DNA of 64,000 nucleotides from Clostridium algifaecis. GTDB lineage: Bacteria; Bacillota; Clostridia; Clostridiales; Clostridiaceae. The notes under the pieces are model-generated. The model was not told the DNA's origin, did not search any database, and was given only the letters and a program-made list of their open reading frames with translations. Numbering within the stretch: position 1 is the stretch's first letter; each line of letters starts with the position of its first letter. The position numbers and the translations under genes were made by a program. This document shows positions 6,696 to 62,061 of this stretch, one piece after another. The DNA is taken from the NCBI RefSeq assembly GCF_017874415.1, contig NZ_JAGGLM010000008.1, positions 1-64,000 of the forward strand. Direction: 5' to 3'.

Positions 6696-6770
6696 GTATT
6701 GATGATATATTTAATATCTTTAAATTAATTGTTAAAAGCAGGTGGTATTTAAAAAGTTAAATTAATTTAA

Positions 6771-6960
6771 AGCGCCAGAACTTAAGCGTATGATTCTAAT
6801 TTACAGGTTATAATAAAAATAAACTGTAGGTTTTGCTTAAGTTGACGAGGATGGGGAGTATCGAATCTTCGGCGGGTGCCCCACGGTATCGCACTACCGT
6901 TAACGGCTGATAAAATCAGAAAGTAATTTCTGCAACAACATCAGTCTGGTGTTAAAACCT
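6771..6960 (+). promoter_or_regulatory. glmS ribozyme (glucosamine-6-phosphate riboswitch)
   Basis: The leader carries the conserved glmS ribozyme core: AGCGCCAGAACTTAAGCG at 6771, GTTGACGAGGATGGGG at 6841, the TCGAATCTTCGGCGGG element and a P3-type hairpin with GGTATCGC/CTACCG. In characterised members glucosamine-6-phosphate is the cofactor for self-cleavage just before the first G of GCGCC, and the cleaved mRNA is degraded, giving feedback control of amino-sugar synthesis. It is followed by glmS about 200 nt downstream, which fixes the assignment. The 3' boundary is approximate. Confidence 0.95.
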
Positions 6961-43913: not shown

Positions 43914-43935
43914 AACAATAATTAAATATGGATAT

Positions 43936-44080
43936 TCTTATCTAGAGAGGCGGAGGGACTGGCCCTGTGATGCCCGGCAACCTGATTAATTCAACGGTGC
44001 CAATTCCAGCAGGTAGATGCCTGAAAGATGAGAAACTTGAAGAAAAGCTTTCTTGTTACTCATAACTAGGGAAGCTTTTT
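43936..44080 (+). promoter_or_regulatory. SAM-I riboswitch (S-box) with terminator
   Basis: The aptamer shows all SAM-I landmarks: CTTATCTAGAGAGGCGGAGGGA, CTGGCCCTGTGATGCCCGGCAACC, GGTGCCAATTCCAGCAG and TGAAAGATGAGAA. It is followed by a terminator hairpin (AAAAGCTTTC pairing with GGGAAGCTTTTT, 44043-44080). When SAM is high the downstream transcript should stop. It controls the ROK regulator and the hcyS-hcyF-hcyD-sir-metY genes. Confidence 0.97.
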
Positions 44081-44164
44081 ATGTATCCCGATTTAATAAA
44101 TTTAATTTATAAACTTATCACCAAAAAAGTTAAAAGATTAGTAAAGGTTGCTGAGAGAATAATT

Positions 44165-45289
44165 ATGAATTGCAGTTATGATTTATTTAATAGTATGCGG
44201 CATGAAGAAAAAGATATATTAAACTTACTTCAAAAGAATGGTTCCATGACTAAAAATGATATTTTGTGCAAGCTTAAAATGAAATTGACATCATTAAACC
44301 GTTTGATGGATCCTCTTGAGGAGAATAAAATTATAATCAAGTATTCTATAGGAAAATCAAGTGGCGGAAGAAAACCGGTACTGTATGATGTGAGTCTCTG
44401 TAATTTTTATATAATAGGCATTGAAATATCTAGAGAATATACAGAAGTAGTACTTACTAATTTTAGGATTCAGATAATATATAAAGAAAAATTTAAAATG
44501 GACAGTTCATTTACTCCTTATAAAACAGCATTTAAAATATTGGAGATTATAAATAAAGCTGTAGAAAAGCTAATGATTTGTTCCGTAGGGTTGTTTGGAA
44601 TAGGGGTATCCATACCTGGAAATTTTGAAAATTTTTATTGTAATGGATGGAGTAATGATGAAGTAAAGATTGCTATGGAAAAAGTTTTGGAATGCCCGGT
44701 TGTTATTCAATATGGTGCAACTGCTGCAGCAGTTGCAGAATGTTATTATGGATTTAAGAATGAATTTAAAAATGTCGGCTATTTTAATTGTGGATCTAAT
44801 ATAAGGACAGGTATAATTTTGAATGGCAAAATTTTGGGAGCAAGAAACGATATAGAAGATGCTCTTGGACACATGATTTTAAAAGATTATGGCACTATAC
44901 AGGATTGCTGCTCAGAAAAGGCAATAACAAAAAAATTTGCATCAAAAAATAATTATTCGAGTGAAGTTAGATATAAAGATGTCTGTACTGCAGCCAGTAG
45001 TGGTGATGAAATTGCGCAAAATGTAATAAAAGAAGCAGCTTATATTTTGGGATTAGGTCTTGCAAATTATATAACGATGCTTGACTTGAGGGCTGTAATA
45101 TTAAGCGGCTCGTTGATTGAAAATTCAAAGCTATTTTATGATACTTGCATTAAAACTGTAATAGAAAAATCAAATATTAATGAAAAAAATAAAGTTATTT
45201 TTAAATCAGGTGGATTTTTCAATAAAGATGCAATTTCAGCAGGGGCAGCAGCGGTGGTTGTTGAGAAATACCTGGATAATAACTTTTGA
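44165..45289 (+). CDS. ROK-family transcriptional regulator
   Basis: A 374-residue regulator with an N-terminal winged helix (NLLQKNGSMTKNDILCKLKMKLTSLNRLMDPLEE) and a ROK actin-like domain (YIIGIEISREYTEVVLTN, GIGVSIPGN, GHMILKDYG). The usual zinc motif of ROK proteins (GHxxxxxxGxxCxCGxxGCxE) is degenerate here: only CC remains in IQDCCSEKA. ROK regulators normally sense sugars; in a SAM-riboswitch operon with sulfur genes the ligand is unlikely to be a sugar. I set the start at ATG 44165, since the earlier in-frame ATG (44081) lies in the riboswitch terminator tail. Function in sulfur control is inferred. Confidence 0.8.
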   Translation: MNCSYDLFNSMRHEEKDILNLLQKNGSMTKNDILCKLKMKLTSLNRLMDPLEENKIIIKYSIGKSSGGRKPVLYDVSLCNFYIIGIEISREYTEVVLTNFRIQIIYKEKFKMDSSFTPYKTAFKILEIINKAVEKLMICSVGLFGIGVSIPGNFENFYCNGWSNDEVKIAMEKVLECPVVIQYGATAAAVAECYYGFKNEFKNVGYFNCGSNIRTGIILNGKILGARNDIEDALGHMILKDYGTIQDCCSEKAITKKFASKNNYSSEVRYKDVCTAASSGDEIAQNVIKEAAYILGLGLANYITMLDLRAVILSGSLIENSKLFYDTCIKTVIEKSNINEKNKVIFKSGGFFNKDAISAGAAAVVVEKYLDNNF

Positions 45290-45331
45290 ATAAATTACTT
45301 TATATTGTTGTATACAAAGAGGAGGAAAATT

Positions 45332-45547
45332 ATGATTATAAAAGTAAATGGGGAAGACAAGGAAATAAAAGATGGTGTAAATGTAACTGAAATTTTAAAG
45401 ATCGAAAATGTTGAAATGCCAGATATGGTTTCAGTTCAATTAAATGATGAATTTATAGATAGAGACAAATTTGATGCTACAATTTTAAAGCAGAATGATA
45501 AGATAGACTTTTTATATTTCATGGGAGGCGGATCTTTTGGACTTTAA
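45332..45547 (+). CDS. hcyS: ThiS/MoaD-like sulfur carrier, HcyS type
   Basis: A 71-residue ubiquitin-fold sulfur carrier starting MIIKVNGEDKEIKDGVNVTEIL, with KQNDKIDFLYFMGGG near the end. ThiS-like carriers end in Gly-Gly, to which sulfur is attached as thiocarboxylate. Here Gly65-Gly66-Gly67 is followed by four more residues, SFGL, so a protease must trim the tail first. The JAMM protease two genes downstream is the likely one. This matches the Wolinella HcyS system, in which a C-terminal extra residue is removed. The start is ATG 45332 after GAGGAGGAAA. It overlaps the next gene by 11 bp. A role in homocysteine rather than thiamine or molybdopterin synthesis is inferred from the neighbours. 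Confidence 0.85.
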   Translation: MIIKVNGEDKEIKDGVNVTEILKIENVEMPDMVSVQLNDEFIDRDKFDATILKQNDKIDFLYFMGGGSFGL

Positions 45548-46367
45548 TGAGGAGCAGATTGAGAGATATTCAAGACATATAATACTTTCAGAAGTTGGAG
45601 TGGAAGGGCAGGAAAAACTTTTAAACTCAAAGGTCCTTGTAATTGGAACTGGCGGACTTGGAGCACCTGCTGCAATGTATCTTGCAGCCGCAGGTATTGG
45701 AACTATAGGACTTGTGGATGGAGATGTAGTTGATCTTTCAAATCTTCAAAGGCAGATAATACATCAAACTAAAGATGTAGGAAAACCAAAGGTTCAATCA
45801 GGAAAAGAGACTATAAATGAATTAAATCCAGATGTAGATGTAGTTACTTACAATGAAATCGCAGATTCAAGCAACATATTAGACATTATAAAAGATAAGG
45901 ACTATGATTTTATAATAGATGGAACCGACAATTTTCCAGCTAAGTTTTTGATAAATGATGCTTGTGTGCTTGCAAAGAAGCCATTTTCCCACGGAGGAAT
46001 AATAAGATTTCAGGGACAGCTCACAACTTACATACCGGATAATGGAACACCATGCTATAGATGTATATTCCAATCACCACCACCAGCTGGTGTAGTGCCA
46101 ACTTGCAGGGAAGCAGGTGTTTTAGGAGTTATGGGTGGTGTAATAGGTTCACTTCAAGCTTCAGAAGCTCTTAAATATATTTTGAACATAGGAGACAACC
46201 TTGCTGGATATCTTTTAACTTATAATGCACTCACAATGCAGTTTAGAAAGATAAAGGTATCTAAAAATAAAAACTGTGGAATATGCAGTGACCATCCTAC
46301 TATAACAAATCTTATAGATTATGAGCAGGCGGCTTGTGATCTTAAAACAGGAAAATTAAAAGGGTGA
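45537..46367 (+). CDS. hcyF: ThiF/MoeB-like carrier-activating adenylyltransferase
   Basis: A 276-residue E1-like enzyme that adenylates the C-terminal glycine of the carrier. Visible are the nucleotide loop GTGGLGAPAAMYLAAAG, DGDVVDLSNLQRQIIH, and two zinc cysteine pairs, CYRC and CGIC. A cysteine in VVPTCREAGV is in the position of the catalytic or sulfur-transfer loop. The start is TTG 45537 (MDFNEEQIERYSRHIILSEVGVEGQEKL) with GGGAGGCGG in the end of the carrier gene, giving an 11-bp overlap. Genes hcyS, hcyF and hcyD follow each other with overlaps or very short gaps, so they act together. Confidence 0.9.
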   Translation: MDFNEEQIERYSRHIILSEVGVEGQEKLLNSKVLVIGTGGLGAPAAMYLAAAGIGTIGLVDGDVVDLSNLQRQIIHQTKDVGKPKVQSGKETINELNPDVDVVTYNEIADSSNILDIIKDKDYDFIIDGTDNFPAKFLINDACVLAKKPFSHGGIIRFQGQLTTYIPDNGTPCYRCIFQSPPPAGVVPTCREAGVLGVMGGVIGSLQASEALKYILNIGDNLAGYLLTYNALTMQFRKIKVSKNKNCGICSDHPTITNLIDYEQAACDLKTGKLKG

Positions 46368-46372
46368 TTAAT

Positions 46373-46783
46373 ATGATTTATTTAGATGAATTGGAATATA
46401 AAAAGATTGTTAAACAAGCAAAGGCAGAATTTCCTGATGAATGCTGTGGATATTTAGGTGGAGTTAAAAATGGAGAAGATATATCTATAAAGAAAATATA
46501 TCCTCTTACTAATATAGATCACAGTAATGAACACTTTTCTATGGATCCAAAAGAACAATTTGATTGTATAAAAAGTATGAGAAGTGAAGATTTAAGCATG
46601 GTTGGAAATTATCATTCTCATCCAGAATCTCCATCCAGGCCGTCTGAAGAGGATAAAAGATTGGCTTTTGACCCAACAATATTGTATGGAATTTTATCAC
46701 TTCAAGACAAAGAGCCGGTATTTAATATTTTTAAGGTAGATAAAGAAAAAAATGTAGAAAAACTTAAATATAAACTTGTTTAA
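46373..46783 (+). CDS. hcyD: JAMM metalloprotease, HcyD/Mec type
   Basis: A 136-residue MPN/JAMM zinc protease. The signature is complete: Glu23 in DECCGYLGG, His81 and His83 in NYHSHPES, Ser91 and Asp94 in PSEED (H-x-H-x10-D). Relatives are Mec of Mycobacterium, which releases cysteine from its carrier CysO, and HcyD of Wolinella, which trims HcyS. In this operon it probably cuts the SFGL tail from the carrier. ATG 46373 is used (AAAGGGTGA upstream); an upstream GTG also exists. Gap to the previous gene is 5 bp. Confidence 0.9.
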   Translation: MIYLDELEYKKIVKQAKAEFPDECCGYLGGVKNGEDISIKKIYPLTNIDHSNEHFSMDPKEQFDCIKSMRSEDLSMVGNYHSHPESPSRPSEEDKRLAFDPTILYGILSLQDKEPVFNIFKVDKEKNVEKLKYKLV

Positions 46784-46803: not shown

Positions 46804-49119
46804 ATGATAGATATTAACGAAGGTAATTACAAGGCTATAGAAGATATTAAAGAAAAATCGGATCAGTATGCAAATGGAACTATAGATCCAGTCAGATTTA
46901 AGGCATTCAGAGTTTCCATGGGATTTTATGAACAGAGAAAAAAGGAAACCTATATGGTAAGGACAAGGGTGCCGGGTGGAGTTATAAATTTAAAGCAATT
47001 TCAGTGCATAAGTGAACTTGGAAGAAAATATGCAGATGGGAAAATTAGATTTACTTCAAGACAGGATATACAGTTTCAAAGTGTTGATTTAAAATCTGCA
47101 TATCCAATAATGAAATCACTTATTGAGGTAGGGATAATTACAAAAGGTACGGGTGGAAATACTGTAAGAAATATAGAATGTTCACCTTTATCAGGAGTTT
47201 CGTTAGATGATGTATTTGATGTAACACCTTATATGAAGGCAGCAACTAATTATCTAATAAAAGATCCAACTACTATGAATATGCCAAGAAAATACAAGAT
47301 AGCTTTTTCAAATAGTCCTGCAGATACTGGAAATGCAGCAATATCTGATCTTGGATTTATAGCTAAAATAGTAGATGGCAAGAGAGGATTTGAATTATAC
47401 GGTGCCGGCGGCTTTGGCGGAAGTCCAAGAGTAGCTATAAAACTTAGAGATTTTATAGAGGACAAGAACATTTTATACTATATTCAAGCGATGAAAAATC
47501 TTTTTGAAGCTGAGGGCGATAGAACTAATAAAAACAAGGCAAGAATAAGATTTATATTGAAGAGGCTTGGAAAAGAAAAATTTGTGGCAAGATTTAATGA
47601 TGAAGTAGATAAATTAAAGTCAGAGGGCAAACTTGATATAAGTGTAAATAAAGATGAATTTATGTTGCACAAGAAATCAAATATTGTAAAAGAAGTTAAG
47701 TTGTCAAAAGGACTTGAAAATGTAATATTCCCTCAGAAACAAGCAGGATATTATTCAGTTTATATTCATCCGCAAAGTGGACATTTACAGGTGGATAATT
47801 TAGATAAGGTACTTAATTTTGTTAAAGATTTAGATTATGAAGTGTCTATAAGGACTACAAATACCCAGGGGTTTTTTATAAGAGATTTGAAAGAGAAAGA
47901 TGCAGGCAAGTTAGCAGGTATAATATCTAGCTTTTCTTCTAAATATAATCTTTTTAACTCATTGACCTGTGTTGGTGCTTCAACATGTCAGCTTGGACTT
48001 TGTCTGTCACAAAATCTTTTGACTGCAATAAAGAAAGAATTTGAGCCATTATCAGATGATTTGAAGGATCAACTTCCAAGGCTTTATATATCAGGGTGTC
48101 CAAATTCATGTGCACAACATGAAAAAGCCCCACTTGGACTTCATGGAAGAGCCAAGAGGACTCAAAATGGATTAATACCCATGTATTCAGTGTCATTTGG
48201 AGGAAGAGTTGGAAGCAGTGCAATAATGGGCGAGGAATACGGTGATATTCCAGCTAAAAAGATACTTGAATTTCTTCATAAATTAGCAGAGTTGAAGTTA
48301 AGTTCGGGATACGAAGATTTTTATGAATTCATAAATAATAATGAGCAGCAGATAAGGGGTTTAGCAGCCGAATATACAAATATAGAGAAATTTGTAGATG
48401 ATGAAGATATTTATTATGATTTTGAAGCTTGTGAAAAATTCTCATTAAAGGGACGTGGACCTGGAGAATGCAGCAGTGGAGTACTTGATGTTATAAAACT
48501 TGATTTATCAAATGCTAAAGCTTCTCTTGACAAGTACAAAGAATTAAAGAATGATAATGATTTATATTTATCAGCGTTGTCATCTGCAAGGACACTTCTG
48601 GTTTTAAGAGGGGTAGACTCAAATAAACACAGAGAAATATTCAAAGAGTTTGAAAAGAATTTTATAGATACTGGATATGTGAAAGCTTCAATAAAGAATC
48701 TGTTTGAAAATCTTCTTGACTATAAACTTGGAGATATAGAGGATATTTCAGATAAATTGGCTGATATAGAATATCTATATAATAAAGTAAAAGCTATGTA
48801 TGAATCATTAAATGGAAAGCTTGAAATAACACTTCCAAAGGAAAAAGAAGTTTTAAAGCAGAATGAAGATGTTGAAAAATCAGAGAACTCAGGTGAATAC
48901 AAGGTTGTTGACTTTAGAGGAGTAAAATGCCCAATAAACTTTGTCAAAGTAAAGATAGAACTTTCTAAAATAAAATCAGGAGAAAAAAGAGGATTTTATT
49001 TAGATGATGGTGATCCAATAAAGAATGTTCCACAAAGTGTAAAAAGAGAAGGGCATAAAATAATTTCTATAGATTCAAATTATGATGGCTATAATCTTAT
49101 AATTATAGAAAAAAAATAA
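46804..49119 (+). CDS. Sulfite reductase with HEPN-like and TusA domains
   Basis: A 771-residue fusion. Residues 1 to about 530 are a siroheme/[4Fe-4S] sulfite or nitrite reductase: TGGNTVRNIECSPLSGV and the cluster ligands Cys389, Cys395, Cys432 and Cys436 (TCVGASTC ... GCPNSC). Residues ~560-690 are helical with SSARTLLVLRG, resembling a HEPN-type segment. Residues 698-771 are a TusA sulfur-transfer domain with its cysteine at 709 (FRGVKCPIN). I infer that sulfite is reduced to sulfide and the TusA part hands sulfur toward the HcyS carrier or MetY. Start after GGGGTG. It sits 20 bp after hcyD and 26 bp before metY. Confidence 0.9.
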   Translation: MIDINEGNYKAIEDIKEKSDQYANGTIDPVRFKAFRVSMGFYEQRKKETYMVRTRVPGGVINLKQFQCISELGRKYADGKIRFTSRQDIQFQSVDLKSAYPIMKSLIEVGIITKGTGGNTVRNIECSPLSGVSLDDVFDVTPYMKAATNYLIKDPTTMNMPRKYKIAFSNSPADTGNAAISDLGFIAKIVDGKRGFELYGAGGFGGSPRVAIKLRDFIEDKNILYYIQAMKNLFEAEGDRTNKNKARIRFILKRLGKEKFVARFNDEVDKLKSEGKLDISVNKDEFMLHKKSNIVKEVKLSKGLENVIFPQKQAGYYSVYIHPQSGHLQVDNLDKVLNFVKDLDYEVSIRTTNTQGFFIRDLKEKDAGKLAGIISSFSSKYNLFNSLTCVGASTCQLGLCLSQNLLTAIKKEFEPLSDDLKDQLPRLYISGCPNSCAQHEKAPLGLHGRAKRTQNGLIPMYSVSFGGRVGSSAIMGEEYGDIPAKKILEFLHKLAELKLSSGYEDFYEFINNNEQQIRGLAAEYTNIEKFVDDEDIYYDFEACEKFSLKGRGPGECSSGVLDVIKLDLSNAKASLDKYKELKNDNDLYLSALSSARTLLVLRGVDSNKHREIFKEFEKNFIDTGYVKASIKNLFENLLDYKLGDIEDISDKLADIEYLYNKVKAMYESLNGKLEITLPKEKEVLKQNEDVEKSENSGEYKVVDFRGVKCPINFVKVKIELSKIKSGEKRGFYLDDGDPIKNVPQSVKREGHKIISIDSNYDGYNLIIIEKK

Positions 49120-49145: not shown

Positions 49146-50369
49146 ATGAAATTTAATACTAAGCTTATACATGGAAATTCGAAATTGGATGGAACTGGAG
49201 CAACAAATACCCCTATATACCTTTCAAATGCCTATGCACATACAAGTGCAGAAAAGCTTGAAAATATATTTCAGGGTAAGGATATGGGTTATGCATATAC
49301 TAGAATATCTAACCCTACAGTTACTGCTTTTGAAAGAAGAATTGCAAGTATAGAAAATGGCCTCGTAGCTACATCTGCAGCATCTGGAATGAGTGCCATA
49401 TATCTTGCTGTAATGAATGTAGTTCAAAGTGGAGATGAAATAATAGCCTCAAGTGGTCTCTATGGTGGTACATACACTTTAATGAGAAACTTGAAATCTT
49501 TTGGCATAAAGGTTAATTTTCTTGAAGATATAAATGAAGTTACATTAAATACTGCAATAAATGCGAAAACCAAGTTGGTTTTCGCAGAAACTATTGGAAA
49601 TCCAAGACTGGATGTTCTTGATATAGAAGAGGTATCAAAAGTTTGCAGGGATAATAATATCATATTTATTATAGATTCTACTATGACTACTCCATATCTT
49701 GTAAAACCATTTGAATATGGTGCCGATATTGTAATACATTCTACATCTAAATATATAAATGGTACCTCTAATGCAATAGGAGGAGTTATTGTAGATGGCG
49801 GCAGCAGCAAGTATGCAGATGAGAAATACGAAAACTTTAAACCATATACTAAAAAATTTGGGAAAATGGCATTTACAGCTAAATTAAAAGATACCATAGG
49901 AAGAGATATCGGACCTGCATTATCTCCAGCCAATGCATTTCTAAATCTTACAGGTGTTGAAACTTTGTCACTTAGAATGAAGGAGCATTGCAAAAATGCT
50001 CTTGCAGTTGCCAAATTTTTAGAGAGCAGTGAAAAGATAACTAGTGTAAACTATCCTGGACTTGTTAGTTCTAAATATCATAACCTGGCGAAAAAGTACT
50101 ATAAAAATGGATATGGTGGAATTTTGACTTTCAGACTTGGAAACAAGGAAAAGGCTTTTAAATTTTTAGACAACTTAAAGCTTATATTGAACCTTACAAA
50201 TATAGGCGATACTAAATCTATAATAATTCATCCTTCTTCTACTATATGTGCTAATAATACTGAAGATGAGAAAAGGCAAATGGGTGTTTATGATGATCTA
50301 CTCAGATTGTCTGTAGGTATAGAAGATGTAGAGGACATAATAGAAGATATTAAAGAAGCACTTAGATAG
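49146..50369 (+). CDS. metY: O-acetylhomoserine sulfhydrylase, first copy
   Basis: A 407-residue PLP enzyme of the Cys/Met metabolism family. Identity is shown by LIHGN at the start, YAYTRISNPTVTAFERRIA, GSSxLYGGTY-like SSGLYGGTYTLM, the aspartate in FIIDSTMTTPYLVKP and the Schiff-base lysine in IVIHSTSKYINGTSNAIGG. O-acetylhomoserine plus sulfide (or carrier thiocarboxylate) gives homocysteine. In Wolinella MetY accepts sulfur from HcyS thiocarboxylate, and this copy is in the same operon as HcyS-HcyF-HcyD. A second, distinct copy lies at 56300. GGGGTGAAA precedes the ATG. Confidence 0.92.
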   Translation: MKFNTKLIHGNSKLDGTGATNTPIYLSNAYAHTSAEKLENIFQGKDMGYAYTRISNPTVTAFERRIASIENGLVATSAASGMSAIYLAVMNVVQSGDEIIASSGLYGGTYTLMRNLKSFGIKVNFLEDINEVTLNTAINAKTKLVFAETIGNPRLDVLDIEEVSKVCRDNNIIFIIDSTMTTPYLVKPFEYGADIVIHSTSKYINGTSNAIGGVIVDGGSSKYADEKYENFKPYTKKFGKMAFTAKLKDTIGRDIGPALSPANAFLNLTGVETLSLRMKEHCKNALAVAKFLESSEKITSVNYPGLVSSKYHNLAKKYYKNGYGGILTFRLGNKEKAFKFLDNLKLILNLTNIGDTKSIIIHPSSTICANNTEDEKRQMGVYDDLLRLSVGIEDVEDIIEDIKEALR

Positions 50370-55480: not shown

Positions 55481-55636
55481 TTCTTATCAAGAGAGGCAGA
55501 GGGACTGGCCCTATGATGCCCGGCAACCTGGATGAATATTTCCAACGGTGCTAATTCCAGCAGGTAAAACCTGAAAGATGAGAAAAAGAAGAATTTTCAA
55601 GCCCTTCTTGCATTCATCTTGCAAGAGGGCTTTTTA
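55481..55636 (+). promoter_or_regulatory. SAM-I riboswitch A with terminator
   Basis: Aptamer 55481-55585 with TTCTTATCAAGAGAGGCAGA, CTGGCCCTATGATGCCCGGC, GGTGCTAATTCCAGCAGG and TGAAAGATGAG. The terminator (AAGCCCTTCTTGC / GCAAGAGGGCTT, 55599-55636) ends in TTTT. Nearly the same sequence recurs at 55968. It controls yezD. Confidence 0.97.
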
Positions 55637-55967: not shown

Positions 55968-56118
55968 TTCTTATCAAGAGAGGCAGAGGGACTGGCCCTA
56001 TGATGCCCGGCAACCTGGATAAATATTTCCAACGGTGCTAATTCCAGCAGGTAAAACCTGAAAGATGAGAAACCCTAAGGATATAACTTCCTACAGTTTC
56101 TCTGCAGGAAGTTTTTTA
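55968..56118 (+). promoter_or_regulatory. SAM-I riboswitch B with terminator
   Basis: Aptamer 55968-56072 almost identical to unit A (same GAGAGGCAGAGGGACTGGCC and GGTGCTAATTCCAGCAGG elements). The terminator (AACTTCCTACAG / CTGCAGGAAGTT, 56085-56113) with TTTTTT differs from that of unit A. It controls the leader peptide, the second metY, and probably metK. Confidence 0.97.
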
Positions 56119-56299: not shown

Positions 56300-57580
<1,281 letters not shown>

Positions 57581-57628: not shown

Positions 57629-58822
57629 ATGGGTAAACTGTTTACATCAGAATCAGTTACAGAAGGGCATCCAGATAAAATCTGCGATCAAATATCAGAT
57701 GCTATTTTAGATGCTATTTTAAAACAAGATGAAAATGGAAGGGTAGCTTGTGAAACCATAGTAAATACAGGACTTGTGCTTGTGGTAGGAGAAATATCAA
57801 CTAAAGCTTATGTAGATATACCTAAAATTGCAAGAAAAACTATTGAAAAAATAGGATATAACCATTCAAGATTTGGATTTGATGCTTCGAATTGTGCCAT
57901 AATAACATCCATAGATGAGCAGTCTTCTGATATTGCACTTGGTGTAAATAAATCTTTAGAGTCTAAAGAGAATGAAAAAGACAGTATTGAAATTGGTGCA
58001 GGAGATCAGGGAATGGTATTTGGATTTGCTTCAGATGAAACACCTGAGTATCTACCTCTTCCAATAGATTTAGCACACAAACTTGCTAGGAGGCTTGCAA
58101 AAGTAAGAAAAGATTCCATAATCCCATATTTGGGACCTGATGGAAAGACACAGGTAACAGTGGAATATGAAGGCGATAAACCTGTAAGGATAGACACTGT
58201 TTTAATTTCATCACAGCATGAAGATGGTATAAGTCATGATGAAATTGAAAATGATATAATAGAAAATGTTATTAAAGAAGTTGTACCTGAAAACTTGATT
58301 GATTCAAATACAAAATATCTTGTAAATCCAACGGGAAGATTTGTAAAAGGAGGCCCTGAGGCTGACTCGGGACTTACTGGAAGAAAGATAATAGTTGACA
58401 CCTATGGAGGATATGGAAGACACGGCGGTGGAGCATTTTCAGGAAAAGATCCAACTAAAGTTGATAGATCAGGGGCATATGCAGCAAGATGGATAGCTAA
58501 AAACTTAGTTGCAGGAGGGGCAGCAGATAAATTAGAAGTTCAAATAGCTTATGCAATAGGTGTAGCAAGGCCAGTATCAATAAGTGTAGAGACATTTGGC
58601 ACAGGAAAAGTAAATGATGATGAAATAGTAGAAATTATAAACAAGTTATTTGATTTGAGACCGTCCGCAATTATAAAGGAACTCGATTTAAAGAAACCAA
58701 TATATGAGAAAACAGCTGCTTATGGGCATTTTGGAAGAACAGATATAGATCTTCCATGGGAAAAACTTAATAGGGTAGATGAAATTAAAAATGAACTAAG
58801 CAGTATTGTCATTTGCTCTTAA
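57629..58822 (+). CDS. metK: S-adenosylmethionine synthetase
   Basis: A 397-residue MetK that makes SAM from methionine and ATP. Motifs [30 protein letters not shown], the P-loop-like [20 protein letters not shown] and [12 protein letters not shown] are intact. It is the enzyme whose product is sensed by the S-boxes, so it closes a feedback loop. It lies 48 bp after metY2, probably in one transcript, and is followed by a strong terminator. GTTGGGGGG precedes the ATG. Confidence 0.97.
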
Positions 58823-61119: not shown

Positions 61120-62031
61120 TTAGGAATATAGATTTTTACTAAAGTACCTATCACCTCTATCAGGAAATACAGTTACTATATTACCTTCATCTATAGTATC
61201 TGCGAATTTAAGTGCTGCTGCCAAAGCTGCACCAGAAGAAGAACCAACTATCAAACCTTCTCTTTTAGCTAATTCCTTTACCATTACAAAAGCTTCATCA
61301 TCATTTACTTTTATAACTTTATCTACTAAATTCATATCCATGGTATCAGGTACAAAATCATTACCTATACCTTCAATAGCATATGCTTTTTCAGTGCCAC
61401 CGCCTAAAGTAGAACCTTGTGGATCTGCAAGTATTGCTTTTATATTTTTATTCTGCTCTTTGAAATATCTGGCTATACCTGTAAATGTACCACCACTCCC
61501 GGCTCCAGCTACAAAATAATCTATTTTACCATTTAATTGATTGTATATCTCAGGTGCAGTAGTAAGATAATGAGCCTCTGGATTGTCTTTATTTTGAAAT
61601 TGTCCTAGTGATATGGAATTAGGTATTTTCTTTAGCAATTCTTGAGACTTTTCTATAGCACCACGCATACCTTTTTCCTCTGGAGTATGAATAATTTCTG
61701 CACCTAAAGCTTTCATAAGAACCTGCTTTTCTATAGAAAATTTTTCAGGAACTGCAAATATTACTTTATATCCTTTATTTAATGCACCTAGAGCAATCCC
61801 AAGTCCAGTATTACCTGCAGTAGCTTCAACTATAGTATACCCACTTTTTAATTTACCTGCTTTTTCAGCTTGATTTATCATATAAGCTCCAATTCTATCT
61901 TTCACACTTCCACCTGGATTAAAGTTTTCAAGTTTTGCAAATATATTAACCCCATTTTTTAGTTTAAATCTGTTTATTTTTAATATAGGTGTATTTCCTA
62001 TCATTTCTTTTATATCATTAAAAACTTTCAT
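61120..62031 (-). CDS. Cysteine synthase / cystathionine beta-synthase-type enzyme
   Basis: A 303-residue PLP enzyme of the O-acetylserine sulfhydrylase group. GNTPILKINR, the PLP lysine in NPGGSVKDRIG, VEATAGNTGLGIA and GAGSGGTFTGIARY are present. In one operon with a cystathionine lyase-type gene it resembles MccA (YrhA) of Bacillus, which makes cystathionine from homocysteine and O-acetylserine, so it may be a beta-synthase as well as a cysteine synthase. ATG 62031 is used because GAGGG is just upstream; an ATG at 62046 lies within that site. Gap to the previous gene is 30 bp. Confidence 0.9.
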   Translation of the reverse strand: MKVFNDIKEMIGNTPILKINRFKLKNGVNIFAKLENFNPGGSVKDRIGAYMINQAEKAGKLKSGYTIVEATAGNTGLGIALGALNKGYKVIFAVPEKFSIEKQVLMKALGAEIIHTPEEKGMRGAIEKSQELLKKIPNSISLGQFQNKDNPEAHYLTTAPEIYNQLNGKIDYFVAGAGSGGTFTGIARYFKEQNKNIKAILADPQGSTLGGGTEKAYAIEGIGNDFVPDTMDMNLVDKVIKVNDDEAFVMVKELAKREGLIVGSSSGAALAAALKFADTIDEGNIVTVFPDRGDRYFSKNLYS

Positions 62032-62061
62032 ATTAGAACCCTCCATTAAATATTGTTGAAT

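What the first reader, a model, noticed from the sequence alone, without database searches (positions are those of the whole stretch)
45332..46783. Sulfur carrier with a four-residue tail after its glycines, next to a JAMM protease
The carrier ends Gly-Gly-Gly-Ser-Phe-Gly-Leu, whereas ThiS/MoaD carriers need an exposed Gly-Gly. Directly downstream, with overlaps, are an activating enzyme and a complete JAMM protease. This is a predicted tail-trimming system for a thiocarboxylate carrier. In Wolinella the HcyS-HcyF-HcyD set is known for homocysteine synthesis; this clostridial version has a longer tail (SFGL) and sits in a SAM-riboswitch operon with a ROK regulator and a sulfite reductase-TusA fusion.
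Basis: partly seen in the sequence, partly recalled or inferred. Interest (0 to 1): 0.75.

Follow-up and report, generated by a model that had tools for sequence, protein, structure and literature searches.

The report
Sulfur carrier with removable end cap
A clostridial gene set appears to build methionine's sulfur on a tiny carrier protein made with a disposable four-residue cap that a neighbouring protease probably removes; the system is known from other bacteria, and this is a new member in which the last two cap residues look like by-products of an overlapping gene.

Summary
In detail: the carrier (45332-45547) ends MGGGSFGL, overlaps an E1-like gene (45537-46367) by 11 nt, and an intact JAMM gene (46364-46783), a sulfite reductase-TusA fusion and a MetY follow, behind a SAM riboswitch. 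This fits the known HcyS-HcyF-HcyD homocysteine system (operon type in Iyer 2006; Wolinella biochemistry 2011, recalled): new member of a known kind.

In the Clostridium clade the closing Gly-Leu/Phe-stop is read off the first codons of hcyF in another frame. Among 149 carriers from 123 genomes, capped ones have an HcyD-type JAMM within 5 kb in 39 of 57, uncapped ones in 0 of 92; 18 capped, low-scoring carriers lack it. Nine relatives have the carrier fused in frame to its E1, each with a JAMM nearby; a free carrier end there requires cleavage after GGG.

Trimming by this HcyD is inferred, not shown.

The parts
43935..44034 (+). SAM (S-box) riboswitch ahead of the gene set
   Evidence: Rfam RF00162, 94.6 bits; also upstream of the carrier in 8 of 20 relatives scanned
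44081..45289 (+). ROK-family regulator between riboswitch and carrier
   Evidence: Pfam ROK 1.3e-24
45320..45325 (+). likely ribosome site (AGGAGG) of the carrier gene
   Evidence: read from sequence
45332..45547 (+). HcyS-like sulfur carrier, 71 aa, ends MGGGSFGL
   Evidence: PF02597 9e-11; alignments A1, A2
45533..45544 (+). C-terminal cap SFGL; expected cut Gly67|Ser68
   Evidence: cap present in 116 of 117 distinct carriers of this type; Gly-Leu-stop follows from hcyF codons
45537..46367 (+). HcyF-like E1/ThiF adenylyltransferase, TTG start inside the carrier gene
   Evidence: PF00899 1.6e-84; start inferred
46364..46783 (+). HcyD-like JAMM metalloprotease
   Evidence: PF14464 8.4e-25; catalytic residues invariant; AlphaFold2 model pLDDT 95.8; PDB 2kks homologue
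46804..49119 (+). siroheme sulfite reductase fused to C-terminal TusA domain
   Evidence: PF01077, PF03460, PF01206
49146..50369 (+). O-acetylhomoserine sulfhydrylase (MetY) of the gene set
   Evidence: PF01053 3.1e-123; groups with HcyS-linked MetYs of Clostridiaceae, apart from the second MetY at 56300

Best explanation
A protein-thiocarboxylate homocysteine (methionine) pathway of the HcyS-HcyF-HcyD type. The carrier is made inactive, its Gly-Gly-Gly end blocked by a disposable cap (here SFGL). The JAMM protease cuts Gly67|Ser68; the E1-like enzyme adenylates the freed glycine; sulfide from the sulfite reductase-TusA protein turns it into a thiocarboxylate; MetY joins this to O-acetylhomoserine; the same JAMM then cuts homocysteine off the carrier. 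What matters in the cap is that it exists and usually starts with a small or polar residue; its last two residues are set by the overlapping hcyF start. Shown here: anatomy, conservation of cap and protease linkage, the overlap constraint, natural carrier-E1 fusions. Inferred: every chemical step, from the Wolinella work (recalled) and QbsD (as cited in PMC6006322).
For: Gene set and motifs. Cap in 116 of 117 distinct carriers of this type. Phylum sample, 149 carriers read: 32 of 32 of this type capped (one as a fusion), 32 of 32 with an HcyD-type JAMM within 2.3 kb; 92 uncapped, none with HcyD within 5 kb; overall 39 with and 18 without against 0 and 92, Fisher p 2.6e-22, not corrected for kinship; in 12 genomes a capped carrier by HcyD coexists with an uncapped one away from it. 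Nine carrier-E1 fusions, a JAMM nearby in 9 of 9, seven of them without a start codon in the first 14 junction codons. SAM riboswitch; MetY in the gene set; homoserine acyltransferase family PF04204 in the genome, 473.9 bits. In Streptomyces the JAMM mutant (by the order in which the mutants are listed) loses the thioacid products (PMC6006322 passages). Six Campylobacterota relatives (L036, L040, L045, L055, L056, L058) end GGGA, which fits the HcyS-Ala of Wolinella (recalled).
Against: No biochemistry here. 18 of 57 capped carriers have no HcyD within 5 kb, 14 of them in genomes without an HcyD hit at E<=1e-10; all 18 score under 72 bits, but caps are not strictly tied to this protease. The profile that defines 'this type' (A2) was built from 27 carriers of which 26 are capped, so the 32 of 32 is partly built in, although the uncapped L110 also passes it. 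L077 and L085 are capped without a JAMM in about 7 kb downstream. L110 is of this type yet uncapped. The window MetY does not group with the Campylobacterota MetYs. The E1 passes NCBIfam's MoeB subfamily cut-off (299.8 vs 266) and the carrier passes the ThiS one (62.1 vs 37.45). No ATP sulfurylase PF01747 in the genome; other sulfurylase types were not searched. Riboswitch not found in 12 of 20 relatives, scanned with about 1.5 kb upstream.
Confidence: 0.85

Rival explanations
1. The extension has no role: it is only the consequence of gene overlap (or stop-codon drift), and the JAMM serves mainly to release homocysteine from the carrier, as Mec+ does for the uncapped CysO (recalled).
For: In the Clostridium clade the last two cap residues and the stop follow from the hcyF start; cap letters are otherwise free; L110 is uncapped.
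Against: Caps also occur in the 79 loci without a long overlap and in 116 of 117 carriers, while the canonical ThiS read in the same genomes end GGG-stop. A carrier with any extension cannot be adenylated at its glycine until it is cut, whatever the cap's origin; fusions make cleavage unavoidable.
Confidence: 0.1
2. It is a ubiquitin-like protein-conjugation system (E1, Ubl, JAMM deconjugase) rather than, or in addition to, sulfur transfer.
For: Same three components as archaeal SAMP and bacterial Bil systems; the E1 scores 337.2 bits with SAMP-activating E1 UbaA (cut-off 450, not reached) and the JAMM 74.1 bits with desampylase (cut-off 130, not reached).
Against: The gene set holds sulfite reductase, TusA, MetY and a SAM riboswitch, and that neighbourhood recurs in named relatives of several phyla. 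No E2 family was among the Pfam hits of the six proteins scanned; E2 genes elsewhere in the genome were not searched.
Confidence: 0.05

Closest known systems
[quoted passage not shown] paper not held; content recalled, existence cited in passages of PMC5764234 and PMC6225789)
   Same: Carrier, E1-like enzyme, JAMM, sulfite reductase and MetY in one cluster; capped carrier (Wolinella side recalled)
   Different: Cap of four residues (SFGL) instead of one Ala (recalled; GGGA seen in Campylobacterota relatives); SAM riboswitch and ROK gene; MetY of another clade than the Campylobacterota ones. The sulfite reductase-TusA fusion is shared with Campylobacterota relatives L036 and L040
Gene neighbourhood type 4e of Iyer, Burroughs and Aravind 2006 (PMC1779556)
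   Same: ThiS/MoaD-like protein, JAB, E1-like protein without rhodanese, SirA (TusA), sulfite reductase, O-acetylhomoserine sulfhydrylase; listed for low-GC Gram-positives
   Different: The section and passages I read do not mention C-terminal caps in this type
Capped carriers with JAMM protease: QbsD system (thioquinolobactin) and PtmS2/PtmS1 (thioplatensimycin), PMC6006322
   Same: Carrier blocked after Gly-Gly (MV, C for PtmS2, PtmS3), JAMM needed to expose it
BilA/BilC of the bacterial Bil operon (PMC11354881, passage)
   Same: A bacterial ubiquitin-like protein whose reactive C-terminal glycine is exposed by a JAB/JAMM protease
   Different: Conjugation system with E1 and E2, two-domain Ubl, no sulfur genes mentioned
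PDB 2k5p/3cwi (deposited as thiamine-biosynthesis protein ThiS) and 2kks (uncharacterized protein)
   Same: Best solved relatives of this carrier (94.4 bits) and this protease (188.7 bits); 2k5p matches through MGGGK
   Different: Deposited without this function; the 78-residue 2k5p chain runs on past the match, whether as tag or cap I did not see. 2kks looks identical over the printed range to the JAMM next to a carrier with an 18-residue cap (L136)

Membership tests
HcyS-HcyF-HcyD homocysteine system | ThiS-fold carrier with residues after the terminal glycines | tested here: met
HcyS-HcyF-HcyD homocysteine system | Adjacent JAMM protease with complete E / HxH(x7)SxxD motif (motif recalled) | tested here: met
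   fold model pLDDT 95.8
HcyS-HcyF-HcyD homocysteine system | E1/ThiF-like adenylating enzyme, no rhodanese domain | tested here: met
   only ThiF family matched
HcyS-HcyF-HcyD homocysteine system | Sulfite reductase and MetY in the same cluster | tested here: met
HcyS-HcyF-HcyD homocysteine system | MetY in the clade of the Campylobacterota (Wolinella-like) MetYs | tested here: not met
   FastTree of 90 rows: window MetY with 4 Clostridiaceae HcyS-linked MetYs (support 100), then a 34-row set (96); L036 and L040 are long branches far from it. Not a defining feature of the pathway in my view
HcyS-HcyF-HcyD homocysteine system | HcyD removes the cap; thiocarboxylate forms; homocysteine is released | not testable with these tools
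   needs protein chemistry
ThiS of thiamine synthesis | Exposed C-terminal Gly-Gly | tested here: not met
   SFGL follows; NCBIfam TIGR01683 nevertheless passes its cut-off (62.1 vs 37.45), a likely source of misannotation
Capped carriers of the PtmS2/QbsD kind | Cap after Gly-Gly plus clustered JAMM | tested here: met
   works like them, different pathway genes
CysO/Mec+ cysteine synthesis (features recalled) | Uncapped carrier next to a cysteine synthase | tested here: not met
   capped; the enzyme in the set is MetY; a cysteine synthase-like frame lies at 61120-62046 on the other strand (name by reading)

The most novel reading that the evidence does not exclude
The cap is a built-in product mimic and lock: its first residue (Ser, Ala, Arg, Gln, Thr, Cys or Asn in 109 of 116) sits where homocysteine or cysteine will later sit, so one JAMM site both arms the carrier and releases the product, and HcyF can charge carrier only where HcyD is present. 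In several lineages the lock is the whole E1: carrier and E1 are one polyprotein that the JAMM must split, as eukaryotes split ubiquitin fusions. The window's overlapped junction has one base more (28 against 27 nt from GGG to the ERYSR codons) than the fused junctions of L194-L200.
Probability: 0.35. Interest if true: 0.6.

Novelty: new member of a known kind. Interest (0 to 1): 0.42.

Why it matters
Carriers of this kind can pass as ThiS (the window's passes the NCBIfam ThiS model; the closest solved one is deposited as ThiS) although their neighbours point to sulfur amino acid synthesis; the cap plus JAMM neighbour is a simple rule of thumb to tell them apart, with the 18 exceptions. The natural carrier-E1 fusions give a ready test of JAMM endoproteolysis in bacteria and a parallel to ubiquitin precursor processing.

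Tried and rejected
Programmed frameshift joining carrier to HcyF in the window: judged unsupported; the codon before the shared GGA varies (TTT, CTT, ATT, TGT, AGT) in relatives, so no slippery site is conserved there.

SFGL as a conserved motif: rejected. Sequencing frameshift: rejected.

MetY as one clade marking thiocarboxylate use: the HcyS-linked label needs 10 changes on the tree, at least 7 forced by supported branches, so these MetYs are not one group.

Cap tied strictly to HcyD: rejected; 18 of 57 capped carriers lack it within 5 kb. Of these, L146 (seen as L189) and L154 (L193) sit beside cysteine synthase-like and sulfite reductase genes, as do the capped L147 (L190) and L149 (L191) that have HcyD nearer ('cysteine synthase-like' is my reading, the other names come from profile searches). 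They may be cysteine-making cousins; not followed further.

Fold comparison of the HcyD model and a model of the fused protein were never run: machine busy.

Limits: one search kept the best 80 of 576 relatives, so nearer ones are favoured; one search did not list all its matches and 149 listed carriers were read; genomes of the genome search are unnamed; counts are not corrected for kinship; three carrier ends that the script mis-parsed (L080, L117, L120) were corrected by hand before the count; in the L131/L132/L135 and L041 carriers the glycine run is longer than three, so the first cap residue is uncertain; one search found no E1 anchor near 19 carriers, which were left out, left out the fusions, and its 114 rows include some species twice (e.g. 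L034/L013, L032/L010). HcyD presence means a hit at E<=1e-10.

Full report
Observation. The carrier frame 45332-45547 encodes 71 residues ending MGGGSFGL. An E1/ThiF-like gene starts at TTG 45537 inside it, a JAMM gene follows (46364-46783), then a sulfite reductase-TusA fusion (46804-49119) and a MetY (49146-50369); family assignments come from Pfam and NCBIfam. A SAM riboswitch (94.6 bits) and a ROK gene stand in front. In 8 of 20 relatives scanned with about 1.5 kb upstream, a SAM riboswitch also precedes the carrier; in seven of these the gap to the carrier is about 135-270 nt, in L003 about 1.3 kb, as in the window.

Cap across relatives. In the family search (206 genomes, 92 with a match) 24 loci, the window's own among them, carry this carrier type and all 24 have an extension; the seven canonical ThiS loci that I read (L002, L026-L031) end GGG-stop. 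In the named collection 576 relatives were found and the best 80 kept: 79 of 80 are extended (L110 is not; L087 is a fusion). The extensions are A in Campylobacterota, and R, Q, C, K, E, SF, SR, SL, AF, CF and many more elsewhere.

Protease linkage. In the 80 named loci a JAMM of this family was found in 72; of the other eight, six contigs end within 2.2 kb downstream, and L077 and L085 have none in reach. In a phylum sample of 398 genomes, searched for the carrier and for HcyD, 149 carriers were read: 32 of 32 of this type are capped (one fused) and have HcyD within 2.3 kb; 92 carriers are uncapped and none has HcyD within 5 kb; in total 39 capped with and 18 capped without. The 18 without, all under 72 bits, are the evidence against a strict link; 14 are in genomes with no HcyD hit at E<=1e-10. 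The profile behind the 85-bit class was built from 27 carriers of which 26 are capped, so that class is partly defined by what it shows; the contrast within the whole set depends on it less.

Where SFGL comes from. In 29 loci (about 24 different junctions) hcyF starts 11 nt inside the carrier gene, at TTG in 23 and GTG in 6, never ATG. The first hcyF codons, typically xTG-GAY-TTT-ARY, read in the carrier's frame give Gly-Leu/Phe-stop. Of the 29, 28 read [STAN]-x-Gly-[Leu/Phe/Ile/Val]; L126 (TSEF) departs because its second hcyF codon is AAT. In the 79 loci without such overlap, the E1 N-terminus still has Phe or Leu at that place in 70 and Thr, Ser or Asn next in 79, so these are features of the E1 protein and the cap letters follow from them. 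In those 79, ATG is the nearest start in 62.

Fusions. Nine loci have the carrier in frame with the E1: L087, L116 and, in one order of 38 genomes, seven (L194-L200; the eighth match there, L201, is a canonical uncapped carrier). The junction in the seven is GGG-[SA]F[DN][FL][ST]EEEIERYSRH, with no start codon in its first 14 codons; L087 and L116 have other, longer linkers with possible start codons. A JAMM lies nearby in 9 of 9. The L194 fusion and the window's E1 are 55% identical over the aligned part. A FastTree of 151 E1 sequences needs three changes for fusion, at least two forced by supported branches. The distance from GGG to the ERYSR codons is 28 nt in the window and 27 in the seven fusions; leaving one base out of the window stretch raises identity with the L194 junction from 19 to 34 of 48. 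Whether the split or the fused state is older I cannot tell.

Prior knowledge. Iyer et al. 2006 (PMC1779556; [quoted passage not shown] PMC6006322 (passages) states that capped carriers typically need a protease, citing QbsD; PMC11354881 (passages) describes BilC exposing the C-terminal glycine of BilA. PMC5764234 and PMC6225789 (passages) cite the Wolinella pathway paper, which is not held. Passages of PMC11323500 and PMC3980101 added nothing on caps. Searches for HcyS with HcyD and thiocarboxylate with JAMM and homocysteine found no held paper; some searches gave lists of 5, 1, 1, 2, 7, 10 and 16 papers, of which I read only the seven named here, in part. So I can say only that I saw no report of carrier-E1 fusions with a JAMM in what I searched and read.

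Structure. The HcyD model is confident (pLDDT 95.8). PDB 2kks and 2k5p are the best solved relatives of protease and carrier.

Verdict. Observation confirmed; tail-trimming reading supported by inference; SFGL itself is not a motif; the system is a new member of a known kind. Chemical steps are inferred throughout.

Noticed in passing
window 55481-55584 and 55968-56071: Two SAM riboswitches in tandem, starts 487 nt apart, ahead of a second MetY-family gene (56300-57580) and a metK-like gene (57629-58822) (metK name by reading).
   Followed up: partly
G000 contig C8: 49146, 56300, 82293, 92816, 102474: Five MetY-family matches within about 55 kb of one contig.
   Followed up: no
L145, L150, L154, L167, L170, L215, L245, L247, L248, L250, L254, L262, L265, L276: ThiS-like carriers with one residue (I, N, L, F, W, C, V or A) after the glycines in genomes without an HcyD hit at E<=1e-10; what frees them is unknown.
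   Followed up: partly
L189, L190, L191, L193: Capped carriers beside cysteine synthase-like genes with sulfite reductase and E1, two with HcyD in the stretch: possible capped cysteine-synthesis cousins.
   Followed up: partly
L042:9246-10526; L131, L132, L135: JAMM domain running on into a sulfite reductase-like stretch in one frame (L042, L131 translations; long open frames for the genomes of L131, L132 and L135).
   Followed up: no
L136: Carrier with an 18-residue cap (SFGKVKAAKAATGKEGAA) whose JAMM looks identical to PDB 2kks over the printed range.
   Followed up: partly
L110:7001-7210: Uncapped carrier (GGG-stop) of this type with MetY directly downstream; contig ends before any JAMM could be seen.
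   Followed up: partly
window 6760-6957: glmS ribozyme, 109.6 bits.
   Followed up: no
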